Positions 5,522 through 28,062 of a stretch of 35,432 bases of DNA are shown here, in pieces (positions within the stretch are counted from its first letter, which is position 1; every line of letters begins with the position of its first letter). The DNA comes from Thermoclostridium caenicola (GTDB lineage Bacteria; Bacillota; Clostridia; DSM-8532). Under the pieces are notes generated by a model. That model was not told where the DNA came from. It saw only the letters and a list, made by a program, of their open reading frames with translations, and did not search any database. The DNA lies in the NCBI RefSeq assembly GCF_900142095.1, contig NZ_FQZP01000024.1:1-35432 (forward strand). Direction: 5' to 3'. The translations under genes were made by a program, and so were the position numbers.

Positions 5522-5527
5522 AAAAGC

Positions 5528-5591
5528 ACACACCTCGCTCGCAGACTGGACTGATTACGTTCAAATACAGTCTTGTCCGCGCGAGGTGTGT
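5528..5591 (-). promoter_or_regulatory. sigG leader hairpin sequestering the Shine-Dalgarno sequence
   Basis: In the sigG mRNA, ACACACCTCGC (5591-5581) pairs perfectly with GCGAGGTGTGT (5538-5528), which contains the GAGGTG ribosome site (5536-5531). Inside, 5580-5568 pairs with 5553-5541 as six pairs (one G-U), a 2x2 internal loop and five more pairs, closing a 14-base loop. The only asymmetry between the two blocks is a two-base bulge. Roughly 22 pairs in total cover the translation start signal. From memory, a leader hairpin that lowers sigG translation has been reported in B. subtilis; the sequence here is consistent with the same logic. Confidence 0.75.
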
Positions 5592-5623
5592 TTTATGCGG
5601 ATTAAAACCTTGAAAATATTTAT

Positions 5624-5640
5624 AAAAAGCCTTGACAGGC
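5624..5640 (-). terminator. Weak stem plus T-run between sigE and sigG
   Basis: GCCT-GTCA-AGGC (5640-5629) is followed on the minus strand by TTTTTATAAAT, about 30 bases after the sigE stop. The four-pair stem is weak, so partial read-through from sigE into sigG is likely even if it acts as a terminator. Confidence 0.3.
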
Positions 5641-5669
5641 AGATTGCATGAATTGACCGAGTTTACGCG

Positions 5670-6380
5670 TCACAGCATTCTGCATATTTCCCGCTTGAGC
5701 CTGCCAAGAATTCTCTTTTCCAGCCTTGAAATATAGGATTGTGAGATGCCCAGCATATCGGCCACCTCTTTTTGGGTTTTTTCAAGATGGTTGTTGAGAC
5801 CGAACCTGAGTTCCATGATCTTCTTTTCTCTGCCGCTGAGCTTGTTCATGGCGCTTACCAGGAGCTTCCTGTCGGTCTCTTCCTCCAGGTTCCTCTGGAT
5901 GATATCGCTGTCGGTTCCCAGAATATCGGAAAGCAGCAGTTCATTGCCATCCCAGTCCACATTGAGCGGCTCCTCAAAGGATACCTCGCTGCGGGCGCGG
6001 CTGTTCTTTCTCAGGTACATCAGGATTTCGTTCTCAATGCAGCGGGAGGCATATGTGGCCAGTTTGATGTTCCTTCCGGGATTATAGGTGTTGATGGCCT
6101 TGATGAGCCCAATGGTACCAATGGATGTCAGGTCTTCAATATCAACACCGGTATTCTCGAATTTTCTGGCTATGTAAACCACCAATCGGAGGTTCCTTTC
6201 GATCAGCACATGCTTGACTGAGGTATCACCCGCTTCCAGGTTCTCAAGCAACTCTGCCTCCTCCTCGGCTTGCAGCGGCGGAGGCAGGACATCATTGCCC
6301 CCGATATAGAAAACCTCGTTGGCAGGCTGATCGGATTTGGAAGCAAAGTTGAAAAAGAACCCAAACACCTTTTCAAACAT
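5670..6380 (-). CDS. sigE: Sporulation sigma factor SigE precursor (pro-sigma-E)
   Basis: This is the early mother-cell sigma factor. The 236-residue protein has a hydrophobic N-terminal pro-sequence ([15 protein letters not shown]...) ending near NEVFYIGG, which aligns with the processing site of B. subtilis pro-sigma-E. The mature part contains [51 protein letters not shown] and a region 4 helix-turn-helix [23 protein letters not shown] chose the ATG at 6380, with AAGGGGA nine bases upstream. An ATG at 6416 would add twelve residues that no relative has and that span this ribosome site. The processing protease gene spoIIGA lies immediately upstream, 47 bases away, so the two are surely one operon. 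Confidence 0.97.
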
Positions 6381-6427
6381 CTTTAAACATCCCCTTCTCG
6401 TTTTGCTTGTCTGCATGCACGGTCACG

Positions 6428-7327
6428 TTATATGTTAGCCAGTGATGCCGGACCTATCAGCGCTGTATACCTGGAGTTGTTGGACAGTTTGATGCCGCAG
6501 ATGCCAACAATCACGTTCCTGAGTTCCTTGAAGCTGTTCCCGTGCAATACCCTGATGGCATCAGGTCTGAATCCCGCCAAAATACCGTTTTCCCGTCCTA
6601 TTGACTTGAACGGGATCAAATGCATTCTGCTCTTCCAGGACGGATTGATTTCGTCCTTTATCTGCCCGTCGGACACCTTACTGGACAGAAAGAAGTTGTA
6701 AACATCCGGCGGTACGATGTCCTTGACCGATTCCGCCTCGACAATCATCACCGGATACCCTGTCAGCGGATCGATCAGCGAATTCCCGGTATCTATCAAG
6801 GCATTAAACCGGGCAGATCGTTTCCCAAGAATGACATTTACCCGCACGATGTTTCCCTCTCTGATCGCCTTGCCCGACAGAATTCTTCCGATGGGGCGAA
6901 CCAGTATGATGCAGAGCCCGGCTGCGAACAAAAAGGCCTTCAGCACGCCCTGCGGACTTATGTACATCAATCCGCCATATGTGAGCATGCTTTCTCCCAG
7001 AACGCCTGAAAATGCATACGTGCAGCCGCCCAGCATGAAGGCCACCAGCAGCATGATTCCCCATCGTTTCAGAAAATCGGTCGTGTTCCTCACCCTGAAC
7101 GCTATCAGCACCATCAGCATGGAGATCAACATCTTGACGAGCAGCGAAGCAATCAGGGGATTGGACTGGTAGATCACTGCAAATACGGCGTAAAGGGAGC
7201 CGACCGATGCGGAGAGAAGGATTCTCCAAAGCGTCGATGGGAAACCCGACATCACGCTGGTCAGCTTCAGGATGAAGCAGTTGGCGAGCAGGTTCTCCAA
7301 GAACAACATGTCAGCATAAACCACCAT
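6428..7327 (-). CDS. spoIIGA: Sigma-E processing peptidase SpoIIGA
   Basis: The 299-residue protein has five hydrophobic segments in residues about 5-150, followed by a cytosolic aspartic-protease-like domain with the catalytic motif ALIDTGNSLIDP (D179). SpoIIGA sits in the septal membrane and cleaves the pro-sequence from sigma-E once triggered from the forespore. Length is close to the B. subtilis protein (309). The ATG is preceded by GGGAGGGGGAG. It is the first gene of the spoIIGA-sigE operon and is divergent from the asparagine-synthetase-like gene across about 314 bases. Confidence 0.95.
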   Translation of the reverse strand: MVVYADMLFLENLLANCFILKLTSVMSGFPSTLWRILLSASVGSLYAVFAVIYQSNPLIASLLVKMLISMLMVLIAFRVRNTTDFLKRWGIMLLVAFMLGGCTYAFSGVLGESMLTYGGLMYISPQGVLKAFLFAAGLCIILVRPIGRILSGKAIREGNIVRVNVILGKRSARFNALIDTGNSLIDPLTGYPVMIVEAESVKDIVPPDVYNFFLSSKVSDGQIKDEINPSWKSRMHLIPFKSIGRENGILAGFRPDAIRVLHGNSFKELRNVIVGICGIKLSNNSRYTALIGPASLANI

Positions 7328-14909: not shown

Positions 14910-15599
14910 CTATAAAACGTTATGGTTTTTGAATGCCACAAGATTGACATTCTCCACGCCTTCAAGGGCCGCAAGGCTGTCGGTGAATCCCGAGTCGCCT
15001 TTCTTAAGGCGTACCTCGTATGTCCATTCCGCTGCCTCGCCAAAGGCGCTCTTTGCCTTGAACCGGAACTTGCCGGCACGCTCCCTGAGGATCTCCTCAA
15101 GCTGGTTCTGGTTTACTGTCTGTCTGGCATTGATCACAAGCACGAACAGGTTCTCCCTGCCGCCGATCCGGCTCATGGCAAACAGCACCAGTCCTATGAT
15201 CAGGCAACCCACCGTTGCGATGAAGTAGAACCCGGCACCGATGGTGATGCCCATGGTGATGGCCCAGAACATGTAAATGATATCAATGGCTTCCTTTACC
15301 GCCGTCCTGAACCGGACAATGCTCAGGGCGCCCACCATGCCAAGGGAAAGCAGGATATTGGAAGTGATGGTCATGATGACCACCGTGGTGATCATGGTCA
15401 GCGCCACGAGAGAAACCGCAAAACTGTTGACAAAAGCCGGTGTATTGTCGGACACGCGGTAAATCAGGTAAATAAACATGCCCGCCAGAAAGGCAAACAG
15501 CAGGGCAATCAGCAGCTGATTCAGGGTGATGCCCTCAAAGGTCTGGGAGTTCAGAAAATTGTTCTTGAAGATGTCCTGGAAAGTCAACGGTTTGCTCAT
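14910..15599 (-). CDS. DUF4956 membrane protein, partner of the polyphosphate polymerase
   Basis: The 229-residue protein has about four membrane segments in residues 25-140, with the conserved DUF4956 core MVGALSIVRFRTAVKEAIDI, followed by a soluble alpha/beta C-terminal domain (about 150-229). In many Firmicutes, DUF4956 genes sit beside VTC-domain polyphosphate polymerases, as here, where the VTC gene ends 37 bases upstream. The biochemical role of DUF4956 is not established to my knowledge; a membrane anchor or polyphosphate-translocating partner is a reasonable inference. AGAGGGGG lies before the ATG. It is the last gene of its unit, with a terminator downstream. Confidence 0.85.
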   Translation of the reverse strand: MSKPLTFQDIFKNNFLNSQTFEGITLNQLLIALLFAFLAGMFIYLIYRVSDNTPAFVNSFAVSLVALTMITTVVIMTITSNILLSLGMVGALSIVRFRTAVKEAIDIIYMFWAITMGITIGAGFYFIATVGCLIIGLVLFAMSRIGGRENLFVLVINARQTVNQNQLEEILRERAGKFRFKAKSAFGEAAEWTYEVRLKKGDSGFTDSLAALEGVENVNLVAFKNHNVL

Positions 15600-15636
15600 C
15601 TTATCCCCCTCTGCTATTTCTCAGTCATGTTATCCC

Positions 15637-16350
15637 TCACCGGTATATCCCGGCCAGCCTGCCCGCCGCATACTTGGATATGGACCGGCGGTAGCCGACC
15701 TCCTGAAAAATGACCCTCAGGTGATCCGGAAACAGGCCGGTATATTTCACTTCAAAAACCGTGTTCTCGGGCGCCGGCAGATTGATCATGCATGCAGGCC
15801 TGTACAGGCACGGGTTTTGATTGATGCTGGCCCTGATCTGGGAATCTATGGTTATGCGTACATTCCCGGGCTCATAAACGAAGGCTTTCCGCCTATAACT
15901 GATGATGACCCTGGGCCTTAAAAAGTTTCCTTTCAGATCGGGAAACACATGGGAGAAGCATTCGCTGTGTTTCCTGAACCTGAAGTACTCCTCGTCAATG
16001 ATGGGAAAGCTTGTCTTGAACACCATATCCCCGCGTTTCAGCTTGCGTTCCAGCTTTTTTCGGCTCAGATCCTCATTATAGATGCGGACGCGGAACTTGG
16101 GAAGCTTCATGTCGCCTTCCATCTTCCCGGAGAGTGCCTGGTCGTAGAAATCGTCAAAATACAGGGATTTTACATGATAAACGCCATCGGTACCGTGCTC
16201 ATCATAAGAAAGGAGATACTCAAGCTTTTTTTCCAGGATTGCCGCATCCGATGGCGAGATATAGAATTTCAGCTCATGCCTTGCCGTACCGGTCATGTCC
16301 ATTCTCCGTCCCAAAGCCAGCGTCCTGTCAGGCTTAAACCTTTTGTCCAT
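15637..16350 (-). CDS. VTC-domain polyphosphate polymerase
   Basis: This is a soluble VTC catalytic domain protein related to yeast Vtc4 and related bacterial polymerases, which make polyphosphate from nucleotide triphosphates inside a basic tunnel. Visible family blocks are RHELKFYIS, KSLYFDDFYDQAL, KFRVRIYN, KLERKLKRGDMVFKT, RPRVIISYRRKAF, VRITIDSQIR and the acidic VFEVKYTG; the tunnel Arg/Lys residues and the metal-binding Glu are retained. Three starts compete: a TTG at 16377, the ATG at 16350 used here (AGGG nine bases upstream) and an ATG at 16296 with GGAGA six bases upstream, which starts just before RHELK. It lies between the amidohydrolase and DUF4956 genes. CotH-type kinase genes often associated with such pairs are absent. 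Confidence 0.87.
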   Translation of the reverse strand: MDKRFKPDRTLALGRRMDMTGTARHELKFYISPSDAAILEKKLEYLLSYDEHGTDGVYHVKSLYFDDFYDQALSGKMEGDMKLPKFRVRIYNEDLSRKKLERKLKRGDMVFKTSFPIIDEEYFRFRKHSECFSHVFPDLKGNFLRPRVIISYRRKAFVYEPGNVRITIDSQIRASINQNPCLYRPACMINLPAPENTVFEVKYTGLFPDHLRVIFQEVGYRRSISKYAAGRLAGIYR

Positions 16351-16390
16351 TATATAAAACCCTGCCGGTCTTCGCAATACCTGCTTTCAT

Positions 16391-17173
16391 TTATGGCTTC
16401 AGCCCCAAAAGCTTTTGTGCATTTTCATAAAGGATGGCTTCCTTTTCCTCCCTGGTGAGATCAAGCCGGTTGAACAGGGCAAGCTCCCTCTCATGATAGG
16501 TAATGGGATAATCGGTCCCAAAAAGGATCCGGTCAACCCCGTGCTTCCGGATGAGTTCCACGGCGCGCCCGGGTTCCATGAAAGCCAGCGCGCTGGAGGT
16601 ATCCAGCCAGAGGTTCTTCCCGATGAGACAGGCTTCCGCCTCTTCCCATTTGCCGTGACCGCCCAGATGGGCGACAATGAGCCTGAGTTCGGGAAATTTC
16701 TCTATCACACGGGCTATTCTTCTGGGTGACGCATGATCCAGGTGCTTGTCGCCCGCATGCATGAGCACCGGTACCCTGGAACCTATGAAACGGTAGATTC
16801 TGTCCATCTTTGGACTATCCGCATCAAAACCCTGGAAATCCGGGTGCAGCTTGATTCCCTTGAGGCCTGCCCGGATCAGGCGTTCTATCTCGGCCTCGGG
16901 TTCCTCAAAATCCGGATGGACGGTGCCGAACCCTATCATCATCCCCCCGGAGTTCCGGATAATCCAGTCATTGACGCTGCGGACCTGGCCGGACTTTGTA
17001 GCCGTTGCGTGGAACACCACATAATCCACTCCCGACCGCTCCGCGCTGGCCTTCAGATCTTCCAGGAGCCCGTTCCCAGCCATTTCGATGCCGTAATGGC
17101 CCCCAATCTGCTCAACCGCCTTCCTGGCGATGGATTCGGGGAAAGCATGGGCGTGAATATCGATAATCCCCAA
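16391..17173 (-). CDS. Amidohydrolase-family (TIM-barrel) metal-dependent hydrolase
   Basis: The protein is an Amidohydro_2-type metal-dependent hydrolase or decarboxylase. It has the N-terminal metal motif IDIHAHAF, a KLHPDFQG strand (the Lys/His pair of the family), PVLMHAGD, LIVAHLGGHG and the late-strand Asp in ILFGTDYP. The substrate cannot be predicted. I prefer the TTG at 17173, giving MGIIDIHAHAF, because GGGAGG lies nine bases upstream and relatives start right at this strand. An ATG at 17215 would add 14 residues without a good ribosome site. It is the first gene of a probable unit with the VTC polymerase and DUF4956, 40 bases from the next gene. Confidence 0.82.
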   Translation of the reverse strand: MGIIDIHAHAFPESIARKAVEQIGGHYGIEMAGNGLLEDLKASAERSGVDYVVFHATATKSGQVRSVNDWIIRNSGGMMIGFGTVHPDFEEPEAEIERLIRAGLKGIKLHPDFQGFDADSPKMDRIYRFIGSRVPVLMHAGDKHLDHASPRRIARVIEKFPELRLIVAHLGGHGKWEEAEACLIGKNLWLDTSSALAFMEPGRAVELIRKHGVDRILFGTDYPITYHERELALFNRLDLTREEKEAILYENAQKLLGLKP

Positions 17174-17252
17174 CTGAAACAACCTCCCACAGATGCTGCC
17201 CATGAATTGCTTCATGACAGATCTTTCAATAAGGCATATTCATCATACACCT

Positions 17253-18719
17253 TTATTCGAAAAATTGAAACTCTTCATTCGCCAGAAGGATTCTGTCGCC
17301 GTTTTTCAGGGGATGTTCCATGTTGGGCTCTATCCGTACCCCGTTGATATAGGTGCCGTTCCGCGTATTCATGTCGGTGATGCAATATCCCTGGGCTCCT
17401 TTTGTCAGTTCGGCATGGATCCTGCCAATAGCCGGGTTCCTGATGCAATAGTCCACCTGTTCGGCCATTCTGCCGATCCGAAAAGGCCACTGCTGAATCG
17501 TGACGGTTTCTCCATCACCGCCGCTCCTTCTGAGGGAAGGCCCCGCATTGCCTTTCTGCACCAAAAGAACTGTCCGGTCAACAGCGCTTGCCGCTTCCCT
17601 GAAAGCATAGGCCTTCTCCGGAGGCGTTTCCCGGACAGCCGGCTGCGGTATGGCCTTGTTGACATAGGACACTTTCGGAACGGTCTGTTCCTGGCTGTTC
17701 TGCCCGTTATGCCTGAAAACCGGCTTCTTTTCCGGTTCCGGGATTTTTCTTTCTATGATTTTTTCCACTTTTCTGTCCGGCGCGAAAGCCTTTGAGCAGA
17801 TCAGCCAGATGACAGCTCCTCCAACCAGGGCCAGTCCCAGCAGCGTTGTCAGGGCATCCGGATTACCGGGCTCAAAGGCACCTTTCACAACCATCACGGC
17901 CACCAGGGTGAAGAAGGCAAGTATGGACGCACCCAGGATCAGCCAGGATTTGAGAGGGTATACCAGCTTTTTCTCGGTAACGGTCTTGACGGAGGCATTC
18001 TTCTTTTCAGGCATGGTTCCCGGCATTGGCATCTTTGCAGGTTCCGGTTCGGCGGCTGACCTTGCAGGATCCGGGAAAACGGAAGCGGCAGGCCTTGGGA
18101 CAGGCTGTGAATCAGCAGGAATGGTACTTCCCTCGTTCCCTTCATGTGCATTGGCGTCCAGCCACACTTTCAGCGCTTTCAGATCAAAGTCCGGGTTTTT
18201 GAGGACTTCTATGAGCCGCTGGATGTAGTTATCGGAAGGCTCGCTTTTGAACTTCATCTCCCTGATGATGAGGCCGGTGATGAACTGCCTCAGGGACTCA
18301 TTGATTTCCTGCATCATATCTTTGTGGGGTATGTAGATAAAATATATCCTGTCGTCGGCCGGCGACCCGTAAATCAGGCTGCTGTCCAGCATTAGCCCGC
18401 CGTAATCGAGCAAATGGTTCTCCAGCTGATCGAAGGCGCCCGTGATCTGGCGCAGATACCGGAAGAATTCCCGCCTGCCTATCTCCTTGCGTTCCAGTAT
18501 CTTGTTAAGCGGGATCATGGAGGTGATATCGAAGGATATCCTAGTTTCCTGATCCACCTTCAGGATCTCGCACTTCAGCAGCGAAGGTATCCGGTTGTTC
18601 TTCAGCATCTCCAACTGGTACCGGATCAACTGGCTGTCGTCCTGAAAAGCAAAACACATCAGGCTGCGGTTGGATTCGGTTTTGAATTCCTGAATACATC
18701 CCTTCAACCTTTCATCCAT
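17253..18719 (-). CDS. Membrane FHA-domain protein with DUF6382-like N-terminus
   Basis: The 488-residue protein has an N-terminal soluble domain resembling DUF6382 (about 1-190), a Pro/Ala-rich linker (about 195-245), two membrane segments (about 255-310), another linker and a C-terminal FHA domain (about 395-488). The FHA fold is visible from FRIGRMAEQVDYCI, RIHAEL and NTRNGTYING. The phosphothreonine-contacting Ser of the usual SRxHA is Gly here (GRIHA). The gene is last in the Tad-like locus, 42 bases after the second TadE-like gene. It probably couples the secretion machine to another component, perhaps via a kinase-marked partner, but this is inference. No obvious terminator follows it. 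Confidence 0.8.
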   Translation of the reverse strand: MDERLKGCIQEFKTESNRSLMCFAFQDDSQLIRYQLEMLKNNRIPSLLKCEILKVDQETRISFDITSMIPLNKILERKEIGRREFFRYLRQITGAFDQLENHLLDYGGLMLDSSLIYGSPADDRIYFIYIPHKDMMQEINESLRQFITGLIIREMKFKSEPSDNYIQRLIEVLKNPDFDLKALKVWLDANAHEGNEGSTIPADSQPVPRPAASVFPDPARSAAEPEPAKMPMPGTMPEKKNASVKTVTEKKLVYPLKSWLILGASILAFFTLVAVMVVKGAFEPGNPDALTTLLGLALVGGAVIWLICSKAFAPDRKVEKIIERKIPEPEKKPVFRHNGQNSQEQTVPKVSYVNKAIPQPAVRETPPEKAYAFREAASAVDRTVLLVQKGNAGPSLRRSGGDGETVTIQQWPFRIGRMAEQVDYCIRNPAIGRIHAELTKGAQGYCITDMNTRNGTYINGVRIEPNMEHPLKNGDRILLANEEFQFFE

Positions 18720-18760
18720 CGCTTTATCAAACCCCTCTCTGAAAGTTCATTGACTTCCGG

Positions 18761-20053
18761 TCAGGCCGCTTCCTTTTCCTCCTGACCTTCGGAATCTTCC
18801 GGACGGGTATACCCGCCGTAATCATATCGGACACGGACTTCGGCAATCCCGATTCGTTTCAGTTCAGCTGTCGCTTCACCGATGAGCTGATCAAGATTTG
18901 GCATGGCCTCCCTGGCGTTTTCCGGCAATATGATGACCACGATCCTTTCCACGCGCTGCGCCTTCGGCGTCTCCGGCCGGTTTTGGAAATCAAACTCCAT
19001 CAGCCTTTTGCCATGTTTTTTAATCTCGGATTTGATACGGCCTGGCTGGTTTTGATAGGTCTTCATGAAAGGATTCAGCGTAAACACATCGAACATCCTG
19101 ACGGTGTGCTCGTCATAAATGAAGGCGTCCACCGCGGGATAGGTTTTGGATGTGGCCTTGAAGCGCATGCTGCCCGCTTCGTTTTTCAGTCTCTCCACTT
19201 CCATGTCTTCTATGGCCAGGCCCCTGTCCCAGTATTGCTTTTCGTTGTCCATCCGGACCCAGATGCTGTCAGCGGTATCCTCGTTCTGTTCCGATGTCCG
19301 CACAGACGGGCCCCTGCCCGATGTCCATCCAATCACCTTGACCCGGTTGCTGAGGGTCAGTTTGGGCGCCAGCCCGAAGGGAACCGGCGGGTTGATGGTA
19401 TAGGTGATGATGAACTCCAGGGATTCCCCGTCCCCGAAGATCTGCGACTGGCCGAAGCTGATGTCGCGGATACCTAAAACCTTTTTGGCGTCCATCCCGT
19501 TGTTTGCCCGCTTTTTCAGTTCCTCCTCCAGCATCAGCCCGGCAGCCAGGCAGACCATTTCCTTCCTGGTGGCATAGGCAGCTTTCTGGGCGAAAACCGT
19601 CATGAGCAGTTTTGCCTCCTGGCCGGGATCCTTCAGGATGTTTCTGATGAGGTCAACCGCATCCCTGGTGTTTCCAACGAGCTGTTCTCCCAATTCGGCT
19701 GCGCTTCTGACACGGGTTTCCAGGTCCACTGCCGGATTTGGATCATTAATCCCGGAAACCAGGCTCCGAAAAGCATCCACCGCACCGATAACGGTATCCG
19801 CCTGATTCCTGAGCGTATCGGCAGCAGCCTTCCCCATCTCGTCAACCCTATCGGCGTAATCCTTCAGCCCGGAAACGTAGTAATAGTAACTGGCGCTTGA
19901 AATGCGACTGGCCACGCTCTGCAGGGCCGACTGCATCACATGATAGGCCATGAATATTCTCACTATGTAGGCCAGTGTAAAAAGGCAGATGACAAAGACA
20001 GGAAGCACCACGGCCGCTTCAACGGTGGCGCTGCCTTTTTCTCCCCTTCGCAT
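18761..20053 (-). CDS. TadE-like pseudopilin, long form
   Basis: The 430-residue protein begins with a short basic leader and a TadE-type hydrophobic N-terminus (RRGEKGSATVEAAVVLPVF), followed by one membrane helix to about residue 40 and a large extracytoplasmic part. The rest shows no domain I recognise, apart from a C-terminal region ending in acidic residues. TadE-like proteins are minor pilins of Tad/Flp secretion systems. I chose the ATG at 20053 because it gives the typical leader. A TTG at 20116 has AAGGAGG upstream, but that ribosome site is coding sequence of the preceding gene, and this start would overlap that gene by 29 bases and add 21 atypical residues. Even the 20053 start lies only 34 bases past the preceding stop. 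Confidence 0.75.
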   Translation of the reverse strand: MRRGEKGSATVEAAVVLPVFVICLFTLAYIVRIFMAYHVMQSALQSVASRISSASYYYYVSGLKDYADRVDEMGKAAADTLRNQADTVIGAVDAFRSLVSGINDPNPAVDLETRVRSAAELGEQLVGNTRDAVDLIRNILKDPGQEAKLLMTVFAQKAAYATRKEMVCLAAGLMLEEELKKRANNGMDAKKVLGIRDISFGQSQIFGDGESLEFIITYTINPPVPFGLAPKLTLSNRVKVIGWTSGRGPSVRTSEQNEDTADSIWVRMDNEKQYWDRGLAIEDMEVERLKNEAGSMRFKATSKTYPAVDAFIYDEHTVRMFDVFTLNPFMKTYQNQPGRIKSEIKKHGKRLMEFDFQNRPETPKAQRVERIVVIILPENAREAMPNLDQLIGEATAELKRIGIAEVRVRYDYGGYTRPEDSEGQEEKEAA

Positions 20054-20087
20054 GGGTTGCTTTTCTCTCTGTTCGTTCCATGCCCGT

Positions 20088-23000
20088 TCAATACCCCTGG
20101 GCCCATTCCACAACAATCATCCCCTCCTTGTCTTTTTTGAAGAAGGCTTCGGGAATGACCCACAGGTCAATATCAATCCAGGCTTTCACATATAGGGCGG
20201 TATGGTAATTGCTGATGGCCTCGGCAGTATCCGGTGATACGGCGTACAGGTTCAGCTGCATCAGGTCGGCGCATCGCAAGGCCTTTTGCTCCGGAGTTAC
20301 GGTGAGCAGCATAAGCCTGAGGTAATCGGTATAGTCCATCATGATCAGCCGCCCCAAGACATTGCTGGCCCCGCTGGACTTGCCACCTGATGCGCCCAGG
20401 ACACCGGAAATCCTGTCCGTGATCATGTCAAAGCCTTTATCGATGGTATCTCTGGCGAAATCCTTTACCTTTTCCTTAAGGTTCTTGTAGGCATCCGACT
20501 CGAACAGCACGGTGCGTATCCTGTTTTGAATCTCCTTCTTGCATTCGGCAATGACCTGCACCCCTTCATCCCTGATCCGGTCACAGAATGCGGCAAGCTT
20601 GCCGGCCATGTATTCCCGGAGGGATTCCAGAAGGCTTTCTACCGTATCTCCGGTGATATACTTCAGGTCGCTGAAATCAAGGTTGTTGACCAGGCTTTTT
20701 GCCCTTTCGCCCACGGTTTCAGTCGCCTGGTACCAGTTATCGGTGATGCCCGAGAAAATGGCGTCGAGCTGCCCGTTGATAAAGGACATGACCGTCTCCT
20801 CCAAACTGGCTGCGCCCTTATCGATCAGTTCCTCGGCCTTGTCCTGCACCAGATCCCGGATACCGGCAATGACATTATCGATCAGGTATTCCTTCAGCCT
20901 GTCCGGATCAAGGAACCATGACTGGCTGGTCTTGATAAGGGGTACCTGCTCGCCGGCCATGAGCTTTTCCGCATCCAGCCACGATTCCAGGGCGGCCCAG
21001 GATACCAGAAGAAAATTCTGTACGACGGGCACGCCAAAGATGGTCCAACCGGCGATGGAAGAGGCCATTTTGAAAGTAAAGGCCAGCTTTTCCGGATCGG
21101 TATAGACATGGAGCAGGTTAAAAACAAGCCGGATGACGGTGAGTGTGCGTTTTGCCGCCGCAATATTGCTTTGCTCTGAGGGATGCCCGAAAATGATGTA
21201 TTCCACTTCCGCCCTCTTAAACCAGGTTTTATCCAGAGGCCTGTTCCAGCCGATATCGTGTTCCAGGGCATTTCCAACCGTGGTGTAGTTCTTGAAGGCC
21301 GACACAATGTACTCATTCACATACAGGCTCTTGATCAGGGATTCGCCGGCATCGGCCAGCAGATGGCCGACGGTTTCGAAAAACTTCCTGATTCGTTCCA
21401 GTTCATGGTCAAAAAATCCCCTGTCCTTTTCATTGACTTTCTCCAGGCCCTGGACGGGGTCTTCCAGGGGATTAGGCAGCACAAACCGGTCCTGCCGCGT
21501 CTGCCAGACGTGTTCCGATATGGCGGCCAGCCTTTCCTCGGAACTCTCCGCTCCGTCCCGGGACGGAATGTATAACAGCTCATACAGGTTTTCTTCTGCA
21601 TCGCTTTCATTCTCACCGGATTCACCGGGTCCGTTTTCCGCCCCGTCCTTGCCCTCTGCAATGGTCTGTGCTGCCTGGCCGGTCTTCTGTCGGGCATTTT
21701 CAAGTCCGGGATTCTCGGGTTCCGGCTCCTGGACCAGTTCCTTCCCCTCAAAGGTATAGGCATGCCAGATGTCAAACCCTTGCTGTTCCTTCTCCGTGGC
21801 CGGCGGAACCAGCTGATACTCGGGAATATCATAAACCCCCAGCGATTTCATGCTGGAATAGCTCCGCAGATAGGTAAGGCTTTCCCTCAGTTCATCCAGG
21901 CATGCTATCGTTTTGTCATTACCTCTGTACATGATGACAACTTTACTGCCATCACCCTTATCCTCAATCAGCAGCTTGATCTGCCGGATTTCATCATCCA
22001 GGTCCATGGACATTTGCAGATAAGCTTCATAGGCCTTGGTCGCAGCTTCCAGCCATTTGGTCACCCATCCTCTGTTTTGTTCAAGCCGCTCCAGGATCTG
22101 ACCGATATGCCGGGGATCCACGCTGATTAGCTTCTTCTCCAGATCGGCGTTCACCTGCTGCGCCAGAGCGCTGTCCGGACTTTTCTCCATGACGCTTTCA
22201 AGCGCCTGCTTTTCATGCTGGACTTCCTGTGTTCGTGAAATCAGGTTCTGTCCCAGTTCGATGGCCTTGGCGCAGTATTTTTCATGCAGTTCCAGGTGTT
22301 CCTTGAGCCACCGGAGCAAATCCATCGAGGTATGGGTGTATTGATACATTTTTTCATAGCAATCCAGCAGCTTTTTCAACCGTTCATTCAGTTGCTGGGC
22401 CACCATCCTCAGCTGGTTGCTGACCTGCTGATACGCTTGCCATGCGCTGTCCATCGCCGCTTTTTTGGCGTTATATTCAGGTTGCAGCCGGCTGATTTCA
22501 GCTTCCAGTTTCTGAATGGCTGTATCGGCTTCGGATGTGTCCTGCTCCTCCCCTTCCTCCTCGGATGAACCCTTGCTGCTTTTGGCTTCCTCCAGCCGTT
22601 CCTTCAGGTCATTCATGCGCTCCTCCACCTGGCTGAAAGTTTCCTTTGCGCTCTCATAGGCATCTTTTGCCTCTTCAAATTCAATTTTGACGTTTCTGTA
22701 TTCGGCCATCTTCTCATTGATGGCATTGATGGTTTCCTGGGTGGGCCTGACTTCCATCTCGCTCCAATTGTTGGCATTAACGGCATCAATAATGGCCTGG
22801 GATAGCGGATCAAATCTGTCTGTCTTGTTGATTTGCTTCATTTTCTGATCCAGGAGCAGCGCAAAATAGATCATGTCCGCCCGAAGTCCATTGAGAAGCT
22901 TGTCCAGCGCGATGTTGCGTTCGGCTATCTCACCTTCCCGGGCAAGGTTTGTCATGCTTTTCAGCTTTTCCAGGAATTCACTCACGGCCTGGACGGGCGC

Positions 23001-23405
23001 CCGGTATTTCATGAATTCGGCCACCTGCTGCTCAAGGACATAGGGTTCGGACAGGTTATAGTAAGGGATGACCTCCACGCGCCTGACCTTGAACCGGAAG
23101 AGATCGGTCACATTCCCGTCGGCATTTTCAGGGGTAAGGTTGTCCGACAAGAGTTCATATATCTCCTTCTCCAGGGATGCCGCTTCACGGGGGTGCATGG
23201 CCAAAAGGCCGAACTGTTCTTTCATCTGCCTGTCATAGGCGGCCAGCATGGATTCGGCACAGAGTTTCAGGGAGGACTGCGCTATTCTGACCGCTTCGTT
23301 GTAGCGTACCAAATCCATCAATATGCCGCAGAGCGGGATGAGCGCCGCCAGGATGATGCAGATGAAAACCGTAATGCTTCCCCTTGTCCTTTTCATGTTG
23401 CACAT
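20088..23405 (-). CDS. Giant TadG-like/DUF5702 coiled-coil pseudopilin
   Basis: This 1105-residue protein is by far the largest product of the locus. It starts with KRTRGSITVFICIILAALI, a TadG/DUF5702-type N-terminal membrane helix (about 9-31). Long heptad-like, Glu/Lys-rich segments follow at about 215-345 and 385-480, pointing to extended coiled coils. An acidic Gly/Glu/Asn-rich linker lies at about 555-615. The C-terminal third alternates amphipathic helices and ends with an alpha/beta-looking region near 1030-1105. It is predicted to be anchored by the N-terminus with its bulk outside the membrane. It lies 23 bases after tadE. The start ATG has AAAGG five bases upstream; an ATG three codons inside is also possible. 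Its role in the pilus or secretion machine is unknown. Confidence 0.8.
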   Translation of the reverse strand: MCNMKRTRGSITVFICIILAALIPLCGILMDLVRYNEAVRIAQSSLKLCAESMLAAYDRQMKEQFGLLAMHPREAASLEKEIYELLSDNLTPENADGNVTDLFRFKVRRVEVIPYYNLSEPYVLEQQVAEFMKYRAPVQAVSEFLEKLKSMTNLAREGEIAERNIALDKLLNGLRADMIYFALLLDQKMKQINKTDRFDPLSQAIIDAVNANNWSEMEVRPTQETINAINEKMAEYRNVKIEFEEAKDAYESAKETFSQVEERMNDLKERLEEAKSSKGSSEEEGEEQDTSEADTAIQKLEAEISRLQPEYNAKKAAMDSAWQAYQQVSNQLRMVAQQLNERLKKLLDCYEKMYQYTHTSMDLLRWLKEHLELHEKYCAKAIELGQNLISRTQEVQHEKQALESVMEKSPDSALAQQVNADLEKKLISVDPRHIGQILERLEQNRGWVTKWLEAATKAYEAYLQMSMDLDDEIRQIKLLIEDKGDGSKVVIMYRGNDKTIACLDELRESLTYLRSYSSMKSLGVYDIPEYQLVPPATEKEQQGFDIWHAYTFEGKELVQEPEPENPGLENARQKTGQAAQTIAEGKDGAENGPGESGENESDAEENLYELLYIPSRDGAESSEERLAAISEHVWQTRQDRFVLPNPLEDPVQGLEKVNEKDRGFFDHELERIRKFFETVGHLLADAGESLIKSLYVNEYIVSAFKNYTTVGNALEHDIGWNRPLDKTWFKRAEVEYIIFGHPSEQSNIAAAKRTLTVIRLVFNLLHVYTDPEKLAFTFKMASSIAGWTIFGVPVVQNFLLVSWAALESWLDAEKLMAGEQVPLIKTSQSWFLDPDRLKEYLIDNVIAGIRDLVQDKAEELIDKGAASLEETVMSFINGQLDAIFSGITDNWYQATETVGERAKSLVNNLDFSDLKYITGDTVESLLESLREYMAGKLAAFCDRIRDEGVQVIAECKKEIQNRIRTVLFESDAYKNLKEKVKDFARDTIDKGFDMITDRISGVLGASGGKSSGASNVLGRLIMMDYTDYLRLMLLTVTPEQKALRCADLMQLNLYAVSPDTAEAISNYHTALYVKAWIDIDLWVIPEAFFKKDKEGMIVVEWAQGY

Positions 23406-23428
23406 TCCGACCTTTCCGGTTACTTTTC

Positions 23429-24067
23429 CTATTCCAACATCTTCAGAACCTTCTTAAGCGGTGAAGCCAGTTTTTTCAGAAGCTCTCCAATCCCGCTGTC
23501 CATGACCTTCTGCACGATATAGTCCGTAACGTGGATCATCTCCTTCTGATCATAGATGGGGTATTCCGCGCTGCCCTTGACCATGAGCCGATCGCCGAGT
23601 CCGATAAATCGCAGCGCGGCGGCTCCGGGCATGATATAGCGCGCCGAAAGGCTTACCTCTATCCTGCCTGACGGAAAGCCGTGGTGATAGTTGACGATAG
23701 CCTGTGCCCTCGCATCTTCCGCTTTCTTCAGGATCCCCATCGTATCCAGCTGTTTTTTCGCCCATTCCTGTGCCGTCGCTGCCTTTCTGCCGGAGCCGAC
23801 GGGGAGGATCTGCCAGTAGAGCTGCCGGTTGTCGTAGCTTTCCCGGCTGTACGCGCCGGTGGTCAGCTCTTCTGCCTTCACCGGGTTGTGCTTCCACACC
23901 ATGGAGAGACCTTCGGCTGTCGTATCGGCCAGCCCCTGGATGGCTGATTTCTGATACAGGGCCATAAAAATCATGATCACCGCGACAACACAGGCCATAG
24001 CCAGGGGCAGGATCAGGATATACTCAACCGTTGCGCTTCCCGAGCGCTTTCGATCCGTTTTAAACAT
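23429..24067 (-). CDS. TadE-like minor pilin/assembly protein
   Basis: The 212-residue protein has a basic leader and a pilin-like hydrophobic helix (KRSGSATVEYILILPLAMA, helix about 12-36), then an extracytoplasmic domain with PGAAALRFIGLGDRLMVKGSAEYPI. The GSATVE-Y motif matches TadE. Family members are minor pilins needed for assembly of Tad pili. It lies between tadC and the DUF5702 gene, 14 bases after tadC. GGAGGGACAGGG precedes the ATG. Cleavage would need a prepilin peptidase, which is not encoded in this window. Confidence 0.85.
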   Translation of the reverse strand: MFKTDRKRSGSATVEYILILPLAMACVVAVIMIFMALYQKSAIQGLADTTAEGLSMVWKHNPVKAEELTTGAYSRESYDNRQLYWQILPVGSGRKAATAQEWAKKQLDTMGILKKAEDARAQAIVNYHHGFPSGRIEVSLSARYIMPGAAALRFIGLGDRLMVKGSAEYPIYDQKEMIHVTDYIVQKVMDSGIGELLKKLASPLKKVLKMLE

Positions 24068-24081
24068 CCCTGTCCCTCCGT

Positions 24082-24960
24082 TCAGAAGGCATTGCCCAGC
24101 TCCATCAGGGCAGGCATCATGCAGATCATGATGATGGCAATAAACATGAGCATGAGCGGCAGCATCAGCTTGGAAGAGGCGGCCTCACCCATTTGCCTGG
24201 CCACGTTCTTCCGCATATCCCAGCATTCAACGCCCAGCCGCTTCAGTTCGTACAGCATTTGTCCCCCGCCAAGCTTCATGCTTTGGAGGATGATGCCGAC
24301 AAAATTGGTGATCTCCTTGATCTTGCAGCGTTCTGAAAAATCGGTGTAGGCCTGCTGCTCGGTCAGGCCAGCCCCGATGTCATTCAGGGTGATTTGCAGC
24401 TCCCTGTATAAGGGTGTCTCTCCGCCCCGCTCCCGGACGATGCGCTCAATGGCCTGCCTGATGCTGAGCCCGGCATTGACCAGGAGCACAAGGTTGGTGA
24501 CAAAATCAGGGAAATCCCGCTGGATGTTCATCACTTTTTTCCTGTACTGGTCATCCAGGATCTTGTCCGCAAGGAAGAACAGCCCAATCCCCGAACCCGG
24601 TACAATGGCATACCACTCATTCCCTTCCGCACCGCCCAAAAAGCCGATCAGCCCAGCCAGGACCATGCCGAGGAACAGGTAGAAAACCTTTGCTGCCCAG
24701 TGAATTTGCATATAAAAGGCGGCATAACGGCTTCCATGCAGCATGACCACCTTTTGGTGCAGCCATTCGAAATAGCGGCCCGCCCCTTTGAGCCCCACCC
24801 TGTCCACCAACCAGAGAGCGCCCGCCAGGAACGGCTTGTAGAAATGCTGCTTTTGGTCCAGCGGTTCAAGATACTCCCGGTAACTGCTTTGCTGCCAAAG
24901 GTGTATAACGGCATAAAAAGCACCGGCACCAAGGGCCGTCAACAGGCAGAATGTTTGCAT
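24082..24960 (-). CDS. tadC: Tad secretion inner-membrane protein TadC (GspF family)
   Basis: The 292-residue protein has the T2SSF domain of TadB/TadC platform proteins. There is an N-terminal membrane helix, two central helices (about 90-135), the cytosolic four-helix bundle with IQRDFPDFVTNLVLLVNAGLS and IERIVRERGG, and C-terminal helices around KLMLPLMLMFIAIIMICMMP. It is the second platform subunit that, with TadB, transmits force from the TadA ATPase. The ATG at 24960, ten bases after the tadB stop with GAAGG upstream, is preferred over a TTG at 24981 that overlaps tadB. Confidence 0.9.
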   Translation of the reverse strand: MQTFCLLTALGAGAFYAVIHLWQQSSYREYLEPLDQKQHFYKPFLAGALWLVDRVGLKGAGRYFEWLHQKVVMLHGSRYAAFYMQIHWAAKVFYLFLGMVLAGLIGFLGGAEGNEWYAIVPGSGIGLFFLADKILDDQYRKKVMNIQRDFPDFVTNLVLLVNAGLSIRQAIERIVRERGGETPLYRELQITLNDIGAGLTEQQAYTDFSERCKIKEITNFVGIILQSMKLGGGQMLYELKRLGVECWDMRKNVARQMGEAASSKLMLPLMLMFIAIIMICMMPALMELGNAF

Positions 24961-24970
24961 CCCTTCACCT

Positions 24971-25726
24971 TCATACTTCAATGTTCATGATCTTTTTAGC
25001 GATGACGTGCCCAGCCAGAAGCAGCAGCAAGGCAACGGTCATGACCACTCTTCCGGCAGCCGTACTGTATAATGGCTCGAGGAATTCGCTGCTGGAAGAC
25101 TTGATGAGGTAAACCATCACGAAAGGCGTGACGCTGAGTATCTTCTGCTCCAGTTTCTTGCCGGCGATCAGATTCTCTATCTCCTGCCTGACCTCAATTT
25201 TTTCGCGGATCATGCCCGAAGTGTTCTTGATCACTTCCACGAGGTTGACGCCCGCCCGCTTGGATATGCTGAAGATATCCGCAAAGCTTTTAACTTCCTC
25301 TATCCGGACGCGTTGGGCAAAATCGTTCAAAGCCTGTTCCACAGGAACGTTCATCATCACGCGGGCATTGATCAGTTCCAGTTCCCGGATGATGATGGCG
25401 TTCTTGTCGGGATATACCCGCTCAAGGGCCTGCTGGGCATCCAGCAGGGCTGTCTCAAAGGATTTGCCGGCCGACAGGGATACGGATATGAAATAGAGGG
25501 CGTCCCTGAACTGAAGCTTGACCAGTTCCTTCCTTCGTTTGGCCAACTCCCTCTTTCTTCCCGGTATCCATGCAAATCCGAGAAGGGAAAGGAGCAGGGC
25601 AATGAACCAATGGTCATAGAAAATCATGCCTACCAGGAACAAAAAAACCATGGCAAGAAGCAGGTTGAGGATGAATTCCCCGGGCTTCATCCGGTACCGG
25701 TCATACTGGATGATCTCTTGTTCCAT
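24971..25726 (-). CDS. tadB: Tad secretion inner-membrane protein TadB (GspF family)
   Basis: The 251-residue protein has two N-terminal membrane helices (about 16-55), the T2SSF bundle with FRDALYFISVSLSAGKSFETAL and VRIEEVKSFADIFSISKRAG, and a C-terminal helix pair. It forms the platform with TadC, on which TadA acts. I chose the ATG at 25726, six bases after AGGGGG; the ATG two codons upstream (25732) directly abuts that ribosome site. It starts ten bases after the tadA stop, so the genes are translationally coupled or nearly so. Confidence 0.9.
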   Translation of the reverse strand: MEQEIIQYDRYRMKPGEFILNLLLAMVFLFLVGMIFYDHWFIALLLSLLGFAWIPGRKRELAKRRKELVKLQFRDALYFISVSLSAGKSFETALLDAQQALERVYPDKNAIIIRELELINARVMMNVPVEQALNDFAQRVRIEEVKSFADIFSISKRAGVNLVEVIKNTSGMIREKIEVRQEIENLIAGKKLEQKILSVTPFVMVYLIKSSSSEFLEPLYSTAAGRVVMTVALLLLLAGHVIAKKIMNIEV

Positions 25727-25736
25727 GCGCATCCCC

Positions 25737-26981
25737 CTAAAACGTGATACCTCTGATTTGCGCCTTCCATTGATTCACCAGACTGTTGCCGGTCCGCTTC
25801 AGGCGTCCGATTACCCTGCCATCCGGCGCCTCCCCTTCATATTCGAAAGCAAAAAGCGGGTTAAGCTCAATGACACCGTCTTTATATCCCAGAACTTCAC
25901 TGATCTCCATGGTTCGCCGACTATGATCCCTGAGTCTCGACAGGAAGATCATGATGTCCAGGGCGGATGCAATCTGCTTTCGTATAGCATCCAGCGGGAG
26001 CGGCGCCGCCATCAGGACCATGGTTTCCAGCCTTGAAAGCATGTCTCTGGTGGAATTGGCATGCCCCGTGGACATGGACCCGTCATGTCCCGTGTTCATG
26101 GCCTGGAGCATGTCCAGCGCTTCTTCGCCCCTGACCTCTCCGACAATGATCCGTTCCGGCCTCATGCGAAGGCTTGTCCTGATAAGGGATTTCATCCTGA
26201 TCTCCCCTTTGCCCTCAGTATTGGCATTGCGCGTCTCCAGCCGCACCAGGTTTTCAATGGACGAGAGTTGGAGCTCGGCTGAATCCTCTATGGTGACAAT
26301 GCGCTCATTGGGAGGAATCAGGGATGACAGGGCGTTTAGGAAGGACGTCTTTCCCGAACCCGTACCCCCGCAGATGAAGATGTTGTATTTGGATTTGACC
26401 AGCTTGTCGAGGAATTCTGCCGCCTCATGGGTGATGGATTCATATCGGATCAGGTCCTCAATGGTCATGGGCTTTTCGGGAAACTTTCTGATGGTCACGA
26501 TGGGACCGTTCAAGGCTATCGGCGGCAGGACCACATTCACCCTGGAACCGTCTTCCAGGCGGGCATCCACAATGGGCTCCGCTTCGTTGACGGACCGGTT
26601 GACCTTGCCCACAATGACCTGGATGATGTCCTCCAGTCTTTCACGGCTCTCGAACCGGACATCGGTTTTCTGGATGACCCCGTTTTTTTCGATGAAGATC
26701 TTGTCGGGACCATTGATCATGATCTCGGTGATTTCCCGATCGTGGATGAACGGTTCAATGACATCCAGCCTGCGCATCTGGTTGAATACCGCATCCACCA
26801 CAGCCTTGATCTCCAGGGGGTTCAGCGATCGGGAACCGGCTTTTTCAAAGGTGATGGTCTCGATGAGCTCCATGAGTTCCCTGTCCAGATCCGGGCCGCT
26901 GTACTCCAGGGCCAGGTTGCGTCTTAAGGCGATCTCCTGCCTGATTTCCCTGATCAGTTCATGCATTTGCCGTTCATTCAT
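25737..26981 (-). CDS. tadA: Tad secretion ATPase TadA/CpaF
   Basis: The 414-residue protein is the motor ATPase of the Tad machine (GspE/VirB11 superfamily, CpaF type). Motifs are complete: Walker A ICGGTGSGKTSFLNALSS, the Asp box IVTIEDSAELQL, Walker B-like RIIVGEVRGEEALDMLQAMNTGHDGSMSTGHANS with the His box, and an arginine-finger-containing N-terminal half (DGSRVNVVLPP). Helices about 1-60 form the N-terminal domain. It is predicted active and cytosolic, docking on TadB/TadC. It overlaps the preceding TadZ-like gene by eight bases. AAGGGAG precedes the ATG. Confidence 0.95.
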   Translation of the reverse strand: MNERQMHELIREIRQEIALRRNLALEYSGPDLDRELMELIETITFEKAGSRSLNPLEIKAVVDAVFNQMRRLDVIEPFIHDREITEIMINGPDKIFIEKNGVIQKTDVRFESRERLEDIIQVIVGKVNRSVNEAEPIVDARLEDGSRVNVVLPPIALNGPIVTIRKFPEKPMTIEDLIRYESITHEAAEFLDKLVKSKYNIFICGGTGSGKTSFLNALSSLIPPNERIVTIEDSAELQLSSIENLVRLETRNANTEGKGEIRMKSLIRTSLRMRPERIIVGEVRGEEALDMLQAMNTGHDGSMSTGHANSTRDMLSRLETMVLMAAPLPLDAIRKQIASALDIMIFLSRLRDHSRRTMEISEVLGYKDGVIELNPLFAFEYEGEAPDGRVIGRLKRTGNSLVNQWKAQIRGITF

Positions 26982-28062
26982 GGCAACTCCCTTTATCCTC
27001 CTGGTCCAGCAAGGCGGCTATTGCCGAAAAGTCGTTTTCATGCGGAACCCAGTATGCAGCGCCTGGCTCCGCAGGATGCGGTTCCAGTCTGCACTTCGGA
27101 ATATCCGGGAACTGCCCGCTGAAACCGTCCAACCGGCAGACATCTATCAGGAGCAGCCGAAGTTTTGCTTTCAGCCTGTCCAGATCGACCTCTCCCTTTT
27201 CAAGGGCCTGAAGAAATCTTTGCATTTTCACAGATGAGGCTGCCGTGTTCAGGGCAACCGTCCAAACACGGGCCGCCCGTTCCATGAGCCCGGGGATCAG
27301 CCCAAACATGCCTGTCTCCGTTGCCAGGACTATCTCTTCAAAATCGCCCTCCCTGTCGGTGGCGGATAACAGGTTGTCCATATCGGACCATTCGACGGTT
27401 TCCGGCGTTACCAGCCCGCATGGCGCGGCAAGGAAATGAACACCGCTTGCCAAATCCCTGGTCAGACAGGACTCAAGCCGCATGAACAGGTTATCCCTGT
27501 TGGATTTGAGGTAATATAGCATTTCATTGAGCCCCCTGGTGCCGGTGCCGTTGAAATAAAGCTGGGTTGTTTGTGCCTGTTCCAGAGAGATGTAAAGGGT
27601 TTTCCTGCCTCTGGAACCGAAAAGCCGGGCGACCGCCGGGGCGACCGGGTTTAAGGCATCGGCTCCGTCCAGGTAGACGACCAGTGTGATGTTCTGCCTG
27701 TGCTTTTCCCTGGCATGCATTCCCGGCATGCGATCCGCACAAAGGGTGAGGATATCCTTCGCCAGTTCCTCGGCCGGCCGGTACTTGTCAACACGCGGCA
27801 CATCAAGGCTTATCGGCTCATGGGAACCGTCGTCCAGAATCAGGATACCCGTCTGAGGAAGACAGGACAGGACCTGGCGTGCCAGATCAAGGGAGATGAC
27901 TGCCATATCCGCCTGCCCGCCGCTTTCAGCCCACGCCTGAAAGCTTTCGGGATGGGTCAGTATCTCGATGGAAAACTGGTAGGGCATATGTTTGTGCAGC
28001 CATGCGGCAAGCTTTTCTATGTACAGCCTGTCTGTGTCTGCCAGGACAAGATGTACGGACAT
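26974..28062 (-). CDS. TadZ/CpaE-like protein lacking the Walker A lysine
   Basis: The 362-residue protein resembles TadZ/CpaE in layout: a receiver-like N-terminal domain (about 1-110, starting VHLVLADTDRLYIEKL) and a MinD/ParA-like domain (about 120-340). In active members the second domain opens with KGGxGKT. Here the equivalent strand reads ITLVVYLDGADALN, with no P-loop lysine or Thr, so ATP hydrolysis is unlikely. TadZ normally localises the machine to a cell pole or site, and some members are already ATPase-deficient. It is the first gene of the Tad-like operon, with AGGAG nine bases before the ATG and a sigma-A-like promoter 55 bases further up. Identity rests mainly on layout and gene order, so the call is moderate. 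Confidence 0.7.
   Translation of the reverse strand: MSVHLVLADTDRLYIEKLAAWLHKHMPYQFSIEILTHPESFQAWAESGGQADMAVISLDLARQVLSCLPQTGILILDDGSHEPISLDVPRVDKYRPAEELAKDILTLCADRMPGMHAREKHRQNITLVVYLDGADALNPVAPAVARLFGSRGRKTLYISLEQAQTTQLYFNGTGTRGLNEMLYYLKSNRDNLFMRLESCLTRDLASGVHFLAAPCGLVTPETVEWSDMDNLLSATDREGDFEEIVLATETGMFGLIPGLMERAARVWTVALNTAASSVKMQRFLQALEKGEVDLDRLKAKLRLLLIDVCRLDGFSGQFPDIPKCRLEPHPAEPGAAYWVPHENDFSAIAALLDQEDKGSCHE

What the first reader, a model, noticed from the sequence alone, without database searches (positions are those of the whole stretch)
17253..28062. Gram-positive Tad-like machine with unusual subunits and no pilin or peptidase
Eight genes in one direction form a Tad-like locus: motor ATPase and both platform proteins are canonical, but there is no secretin (expected), no Flp pilin and no prepilin peptidase in the window. 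Instead there are two TadE-like proteins, a 1105-residue coiled-coil DUF5702 protein and a membrane FHA protein. This may be a pilus or secretion device distinct from the studied Tad pili, with the giant protein as tether or cargo.
Basis: partly seen in the sequence, partly recalled or inferred. Interest (0 to 1): 0.62.

Follow-up and report, generated by a model that had tools for sequence, protein, structure and literature searches.

The report
Scattered clostridial Tad pilus, toxin-fold tip
The eight genes are the assembly machine and tip proteins of an ordinary clostridial Tad-type pilus; its 'missing' pilin and its only candidate processing enzyme lie elsewhere in the same genome, and the real surprise is that one tip protein carries a disarmed version of a bacterial-warfare nuclease domain.

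Summary
The eight-gene operon is real: TadZ-TadA-TadB-TadC-TadE1-DUF5702-TadE2-FHA on the minus strand, with gaps of -29 to +41 bp. The 'no pilin, no peptidase' reading fails at genome level. A 71-aa Flp1-like pilin lies between recX and fapR on another contig, and the single A24 prepilin peptidase is a PilD on a third. Within the order the pattern is clean: in five genera flp sits inside the operon (12/12 genomes), with tadV beside it where the locus is intact; in three genera, including this one, flp sits by recX (19/19) and tadV is not found. DUF5702 and the FHA protein recur in Tad loci across Clostridia, so they are parts of the clostridial Tad system. DUF5702 is a TadG-like giant minor pilin (its relatives' N-termini match Pfam PF13400). 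The unexpected part is TadE2: its C-terminal domain has the fold of EC869/YPIII CDI nuclease toxins, with the catalytic lysine missing in 44 of 44 relatives. One distant clostridial MAG has two motor-less 'tip cassettes'; one TadE2 there ends in HINT + CdiA_C toxin domains with a weakly SitI3-like gene after it. Best reading: a dispersed Tad pilus with a modular three-protein tip. New variant of a known kind.

The parts
26974..28062 (-). TadZ/CpaE-like two-domain protein, 362 aa
   Evidence: profile hit to 3fkq at 2e-42; no Pfam match
25737..26981 (-). TadA/CpaF motor ATPase, 414 aa
   Evidence: CpaF structures 4e-100; T2SSE 1e-57
24971..25732 (-). TadB platform protein, 253 aa
   Evidence: T2SSF 24.7 bits, just under the cut-off of 25.2
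24082..24981 (-). TadC platform protein, 299 aa
   Evidence: T2SSF 38.6 bits
24068..24081 (-). 14-bp TadC/TadE1 junction where flp lies in five other genera of the order
23429..24067 (-). TadE1 minor pilin, 212 aa, G|SATVE prepilin motif
   Evidence: PF07811; motif
20088..23405 (-). DUF5702 protein, 1105 aa: TadG-like giant minor pilin
   Evidence: PF18960 8e-39; in a scan of 26 relatives PF13400 is matched by 18 and is over cut-off in L075 and L078; for the window protein itself only 12.3 bits
23286..23381 (-). TadG-like N-terminal region (residues 9-40), start of a 48-residue predicted helix; F instead of E at +5
21963..22994 (-). long-helix/coiled-coil region (residues 138-481)
   Evidence: AF2 model; generic coiled-coil matches
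18761..20116 (-). TadE2 minor pilin, 451 aa, G|SATVE motif
   Evidence: PF07811 1e-8
18818..19267 (-). TadE2 C-terminal domain (residues 284-433): EC869/YPIII CDI-toxin (PD-(D/E)XK) fold, catalytic Lys replaced by Phe345
   Evidence: VIA Z 12.8 and 12.0, profile to 4zqu 8e-4, PF21111 in relatives, residue counts
18720..18760 (-). 41-bp TadE2/FHA junction where tadV lies in genera g3, g5 and g7
17253..18719 (-). DUF6382 - transmembrane - FHA protein, 488 aa
   Evidence: PF19909 and PF00498; hydrophobic segments 252-308

Best explanation
A monoderm Tad (type IVc) pilus. TadA/B/C, located by TadZ, polymerise the small Flp1-like pilin encoded beside recX. Prepilins are cut by the genome's only A24 peptidase, PilD, shared with a T4aP. 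TadE1, DUF5702 (TadG-like backbone) and TadE2 form the tip complex, and TadE2 displays a catalytically dead nuclease-fold domain as its contact or binding module. The FHA membrane protein is probably a phospho-dependent regulator or scaffold. Shown here: gene content, location of the pilin and peptidase, conservation, fold resemblance, loss of the catalytic Lys. Inferred: pilus assembly, sharing of PilD, tip position, what the dead domain binds, the role of FHA.
For: Motor, platform and TadZ homology. Flp1_like found once in 31/33 genomes of the order, 25/25 high-quality ones, always in the operon (12) or next to recX/fapR (19). All Flp listed keep G|xNTVE; the window's two TadE proteins have G|SATVE. 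Full T4aP locus on C25 with no peptidase in the ORFs listed there; sole PilD on C46. DUF5702 in 32/33 of the order and in Tad operons across Clostridia. dN/dS mostly 0.06-0.27 across the operon and flp. The Kil system of Myxococcus is an experimental precedent for an unlinked Tad pilin and for minor-pilin tips with variable domains (PMC12075869).
Against: No A24 gene was found in three congeners (G028, G029, G030) that keep the operon and flp, so peptidase use is unproven there; a missing contig is possible. A second PilC/PilT-like locus (C35) could also use PilD. TadE2 model confidence is moderate (mean pLDDT 67.7), and the window's own TadE2 does not hit PF21111. DUF5702 model pTM is only 0.43. 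Synonymous sites are near saturation, so dN/dS is approximate.
Confidence: 0.82

Rival explanations
1. Pilin-less Tad-derived secretion device in which TadE-like proteins are the only pseudopilins and DUF5702 is cargo or tether.
For: No flp in the operon; Imam et al. 2011 (PMC3244431) describe Gram-positive tad operons without flp and suggest TadE-like subunits for them.
Against: A single flp is kept in every genus of the order at one of only two sites, with an intact cleavage motif.
Confidence: 0.07
2. Toxin-delivery pilus: TadE2 is (or recently was) an effector-bearing tip, and the clostridial Tad is a contact-dependent antagonism system.
For: TadE2 C-terminal domain has the CDI nuclease fold; in L226 TadE2 continues into PT-HINT and CdiA_C domains with a following gene weakly like SitI3 immunity proteins; Tad tips are required for prey killing by Myxococcus (PMC12075869).
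Against: The window's TadE2 has no tail beyond the dead domain, K211 is lost in 44/44, and the next gene is FHA. No toxin activity shown anywhere.
Confidence: 0.12
3. DNA-uptake pilus: the dead nuclease fold is kept as a DNA-binding tip for natural transformation.
For: Flp pili are needed for transformation in Micrococcus luteus (title and abstract of PMC4322843, paper not read); PD-(D/E)XK folds bind nucleic acid (general knowledge).
Against: The domain is mostly acidic or neutral (net charge -13 to +3); competence genes were not searched for.
Confidence: 0.1

Closest known systems
Clostridial Tad/Flp loci (Imam et al. 2011, PMC3244431)
   Same: TadZABC, TadE-like proteins, no secretin; Flp lacks the +6 Tyr, which is that paper's 'Flp-like' type
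   Different: here flp is at recX-fapR, tadV is not found, and DUF5702, FHA and the TadE2 nuclease fold are described; the term DUF5702 is in no paper of the held library
Myxococcus Kil Tad system with KilLMN tips (PMC12075869)
   Same: major pilin encoded away from the motor loci; TadE/F/G-like minor pilins, one large and with extra domains; separate tip gene clusters
   Different: monoderm; a T3SS partner was not looked for; the variable nuclease-fold domain sits on TadE2, not on the TadG-like protein
CdiA-CT EC869 (4g6u) and YPIII (4zqu) toxins
   Same: C-terminal domain fold and sequence motif RG..(I)E...D...(S/T)(L/M)
   Different: catalytic K211 replaced in all 44 relatives; on a minor pilin; no adjacent immunity gene in the window
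Modular type IV pilins such as Streptococcus sanguinis PilB (PMC8179133, seen as a search abstract)
   Same: pilin module plus a grafted functional module
   Different: Tad class; module is a nuclease-toxin fold

Membership tests
Tad (type IVc) pilus | TadA/CpaF ATPase | tested here: met
Tad (type IVc) pilus | two platform proteins TadB and TadC | tested here: met
   T2SSF in both; TadB marginally under cut-off
Tad (type IVc) pilus | TadZ | tested here: met
   profile match to 3fkq, 2e-42
Tad (type IVc) pilus | Flp major pilin in the genome | tested here: met
   PF16982 8e-13, over cut-off, unlinked
Tad (type IVc) pilus | A24 prepilin peptidase available (TadV, or an exchangeable PilD) | tested here: met
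   one A24, PilD type; no TadV found with a TadV profile, best E 0.12
Tad (type IVc) pilus | TadE/F/G minor pilins | tested here: met
   TadE twice; DUF5702 is TadG-like by its relatives
Tad (type IVc) pilus | filament formation | not testable with these tools
   needs microscopy
EC869-like CDI toxin | PD-(D/E)XK toxin fold | tested here: met
   Z 12.8 and 12.0, next 8.2; profile to 4zqu 8e-4
EC869-like CDI toxin | catalytic E177, D198, K211 | tested here: not met
   E303 and D330 kept, K211 replaced by F345; K in 0 of 44 (catalytic residues from PMC9086364)
EC869-like CDI toxin | adjacent immunity gene | tested here: not met
   the next gene is DUF6382-FHA

The most novel reading that the evidence does not exclude
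Clostridial Tad pili carry modular tips (TadE1-DUF5702-TadE2) built on a domesticated CDI-nuclease fold, and some genomes use spare tip cassettes to present true polymorphic toxins (TadE2-HINT-CdiA_C plus immunity gene): a Tad-tip toxin-delivery route in Gram-positive bacteria, of which the window holds the disarmed, housekeeping form.
Probability: 0.22. Interest if true: 0.82.

Novelty: new variant of a known kind. Interest (0 to 1): 0.5.

Why it matters
It shows that a Gram-positive tad operon that looks pilin-less can have its pilin elsewhere in the genome, which may explain some 'no Flp' loci in the literature. It gives DUF5702, which no paper in the held library names, a testable role as a giant tip pilin. 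And it exposes a tip subunit built on a bacterial-warfare nuclease fold, linking Tad tips to polymorphic toxins in Clostridia.

Tried and rejected
Canonical Flp (PF04964) search of the genome: nothing; PF16982 was needed. TadV profile over G000, its congeners and several g2/g6 genomes: none, so tadV has not simply moved. DUF5702 fold search gave only generic coiled-coil matches; Z values near 11 for colicin receptor-binding hairpins were not taken as homology. No solved relative of DUF5702 beyond coiled coils. Net charge of the TadE2 domain does not favour DNA binding. Only one paper search combined TadE with polymorphic-toxin terms; among the 10 of 21 papers listed, the only one holding 'TadE' was the Myxococcus Kil paper, so novelty of the toxin link is not established.

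Full report
WHAT IS THERE. The window is contig C24 of a 2.89-Mb genome (125 contigs, 99.98% complete). Eight minus-strand ORFs form one tight operon from 28062 down to 17253, directly downstream of an rpoD-like gene: TadZ, TadA, TadB, TadC, TadE1, DUF5702 (1105 aa), TadE2 (451 aa), and DUF6382-TM-FHA. TadA matches CpaF structures at 4e-100. A profile of TadZ matches PDB 3fkq at 2e-42; that entry is titled 'NtrC-like two-domain protein' and is, from my own knowledge, the Eubacterium rectale TadZ.

THE PILIN AND PEPTIDASE ARE ELSEWHERE. A Pfam Flp1_like pilin (8e-13, over cut-off) of 71 aa lies on contig C19 between recX and fapR. Its motif is G|LNTVE; it lacks the +6 Tyr, as 'Flp-like' pilins do in Imam et al. 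(PMC3244431). The only A24 hit is a 273-aa protein of PilD type on C46, with paired CxxC and the two aspartate motifs visible in its sequence. A T4aP locus (pilT, pilC, pilM, pilB, pilT, pilA-like) is on C25 with no peptidase among the ORFs listed. A TadV profile finds nothing convincing in this genome (best E 0.12).

HOW IT CAME ABOUT. In the order (33 genomes) Flp1_like is present in 31, once each, and DUF5702 in 32; among high-quality genomes both are 25/25. In genera g3, g4, g5, g7 and g8 flp sits between tadC and tadE1 (12/12 genomes with a hit). A TadV-like peptidase lies between TadE2 and FHA in the loci read through there in g3, g5 and g7; g8 has an A24 gene after FHA, and in g4 a TadV match sits on a separate small contig. 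In g1 (the window's genus), g2 and g6 flp sits next to recX and/or fapR (19/19), and the TadE2-FHA junction holds no tadV. The simplest history is one relocation of flp together with loss of tadV, leaving PilD as the candidate peptidase; this was not tested with a tree. In most g2 genomes PilD lies near pilT on the same contig. Congener G031 has no PilB-sized hit and no PilM or T4aP-type PilC match, yet keeps PilD, which suggests another client; Tad is one, a second PilC/PilT-like locus is another. Three other congeners (G028, G029, G030) show no A24 gene, and the PilD-neighbour gene is missing as well; gene loss or assembly gap cannot be told apart.

DUF5702 AND FHA RECUR IN CLOSTRIDIAL TAD LOCI. 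In named Clostridia (Lachnoanaerobaculum, Gemmiger, Helcococcus and many MAGs) and in anonymous genomes of the phylum, 33 complete loci outside the window's group hold DUF5702 and FHA with the Tad genes; Flp lies between TadC and DUF5702 in 31 of them and a TadV match follows in 19. These loci were collected by their DUF5702 match, so this shows co-occurrence, not that every Tad locus has DUF5702. In a scan of 26 DUF5702 relatives, PF13400 (TadE/G-like) is matched by 18; in N-terminal fragments it aligns to the N-terminus and is over the curated cut-off in L075 and L078. The window protein itself scores only 12.3 bits. It keeps the Gly but has Phe, not Glu, at +5. Its model shows one 48-residue N-terminal helix, a long helical region, and short strands near both ends. 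Read with the Kil tip model, where the large TadG-like pilin is the backbone of a minor-pilin tip (PMC12075869), it is best seen as a tip backbone.

THE SURPRISE IN TadE2. Residues 284-433 align to CdiA-CT toxins 4g6u (Z 12.8, 137 residues, 3.4 A) and 4zqu (Z 12.0, 121 residues, 3.1 A), clear of the next row at 8.2. Foldseek ranks the same two first, though with weak E-values of 6e-3 and 7e-3, and a sequence profile of TadE2 finds 4zqu at 8e-4. PF21111 (EC869-like CDI toxin) is matched by 9 of 24 TadE2 proteins of the order, best 5.8e-7, but not by the window's own protein, and in distant Clostridia at up to 9e-14. Catalytic residues of these toxins are E177, D198, S209 and K211 (PMC9086364). 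Across 44 TadE2 domains the D198 position is D in 38, the E177 position E or D in 32, and the K211 position is never K; in the window it is F345. So the fold is kept but the nuclease is very probably dead. In other lineages the C-terminus differs: Cys/His-rich in L177, L186, L188, L266 and L271. That is what a modular tip would look like.

TOXIN-BEARING TIPS ELSEWHERE. In one Clostridia MAG (SKW257) two loci carry TadE1-DUF5702-TadE2 with no motor genes within the DNA fetched. In L226 the TadE2 protein continues into PT-HINT (9e-31) and CdiA_C (2e-18), followed by a gene weakly like SitI3 immunity proteins (9.5e-4, under cut-off). In L231 a Pro/Thr-rich linker is followed by about 110 residues that look nuclease-like by eye, without a family match. 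This resembles the separate tip clusters of Myxococcus. It is a lead from a distant relative, not evidence that the window's pilus delivers toxins.

MECHANISM. TadA/B/C assemble Flp after cleavage by PilD; TadE1, DUF5702 and TadE2 prime and cap the filament; TadE2 presents the dead nuclease-fold module to its partner; the FHA protein senses phosphorylation. Steps after gene identification are inference. dN/dS among congeners is mostly 0.06-0.27 for operon genes and flp, with one Flp pair at 0.47, consistent with function, with the caveat of saturated synonymous sites.

VERDICT. A real, conserved Tad pilus in a scattered arrangement, which Denise et al. call very rare for Tad (PMC6668835), with a tip protein of unexpected origin.

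Noticed in passing
L226:9184-17925 and L231:9248-15938 (MAG SKW257): Motor-less Tad tip cassettes TadE1-DUF5702-lipoprotein-like gene(s)-TadE2 with C-terminal extensions; the L226 TadE2 ends in PT-HINT + CdiA_C and is followed by a gene weakly like SitI3 immunity proteins.
   Followed up: partly
G028, G029, G030 (same genus): Tad genes and flp kept, but no A24 prepilin peptidase found at all; the PilD-neighbour gene is missing as well.
   Followed up: partly
L107 (G000:C35:2000-14000): A further type IV filament locus: PilC-like gene, GFTLIE pilin-like gene and PilT-family ATPase; PilC-like and PilT-like hits are also found in the congeners.
   Followed up: partly
L106 (G000:C25:1-10700): T4aP locus with pilT twice, pilC, pilM, pilB and two pilA-like genes, no peptidase among the ORFs listed.
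   Followed up: yes
L233, L234 (Oscillospiraceae/Ruminococcus MAGs): DUF5702-like proteins of about 1100-1200 aa with no recognisable Tad genes around them, just upstream of a RadA-like gene (by eye).
   Followed up: partly
L177, L186, L188, L266, L271: TadE2 proteins whose C-terminus is a short Cys/His-rich motif (YHxxxC...) instead of the nuclease fold.
   Followed up: no
window 4751-7327: Two sigma-factor-like ORFs next to a 299-aa ORF, resembling the spoIIGA-sigE-sigG sporulation cluster (only their similarity to rpoD was seen).
   Followed up: no
window 14910-17215: DUF4956-type membrane protein (assigned by eye), VTC domain protein and an amidohydrolase directly downstream of the Tad operon; the three also follow the operon in congener loci L086, L087 and L089.
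   Followed up: no
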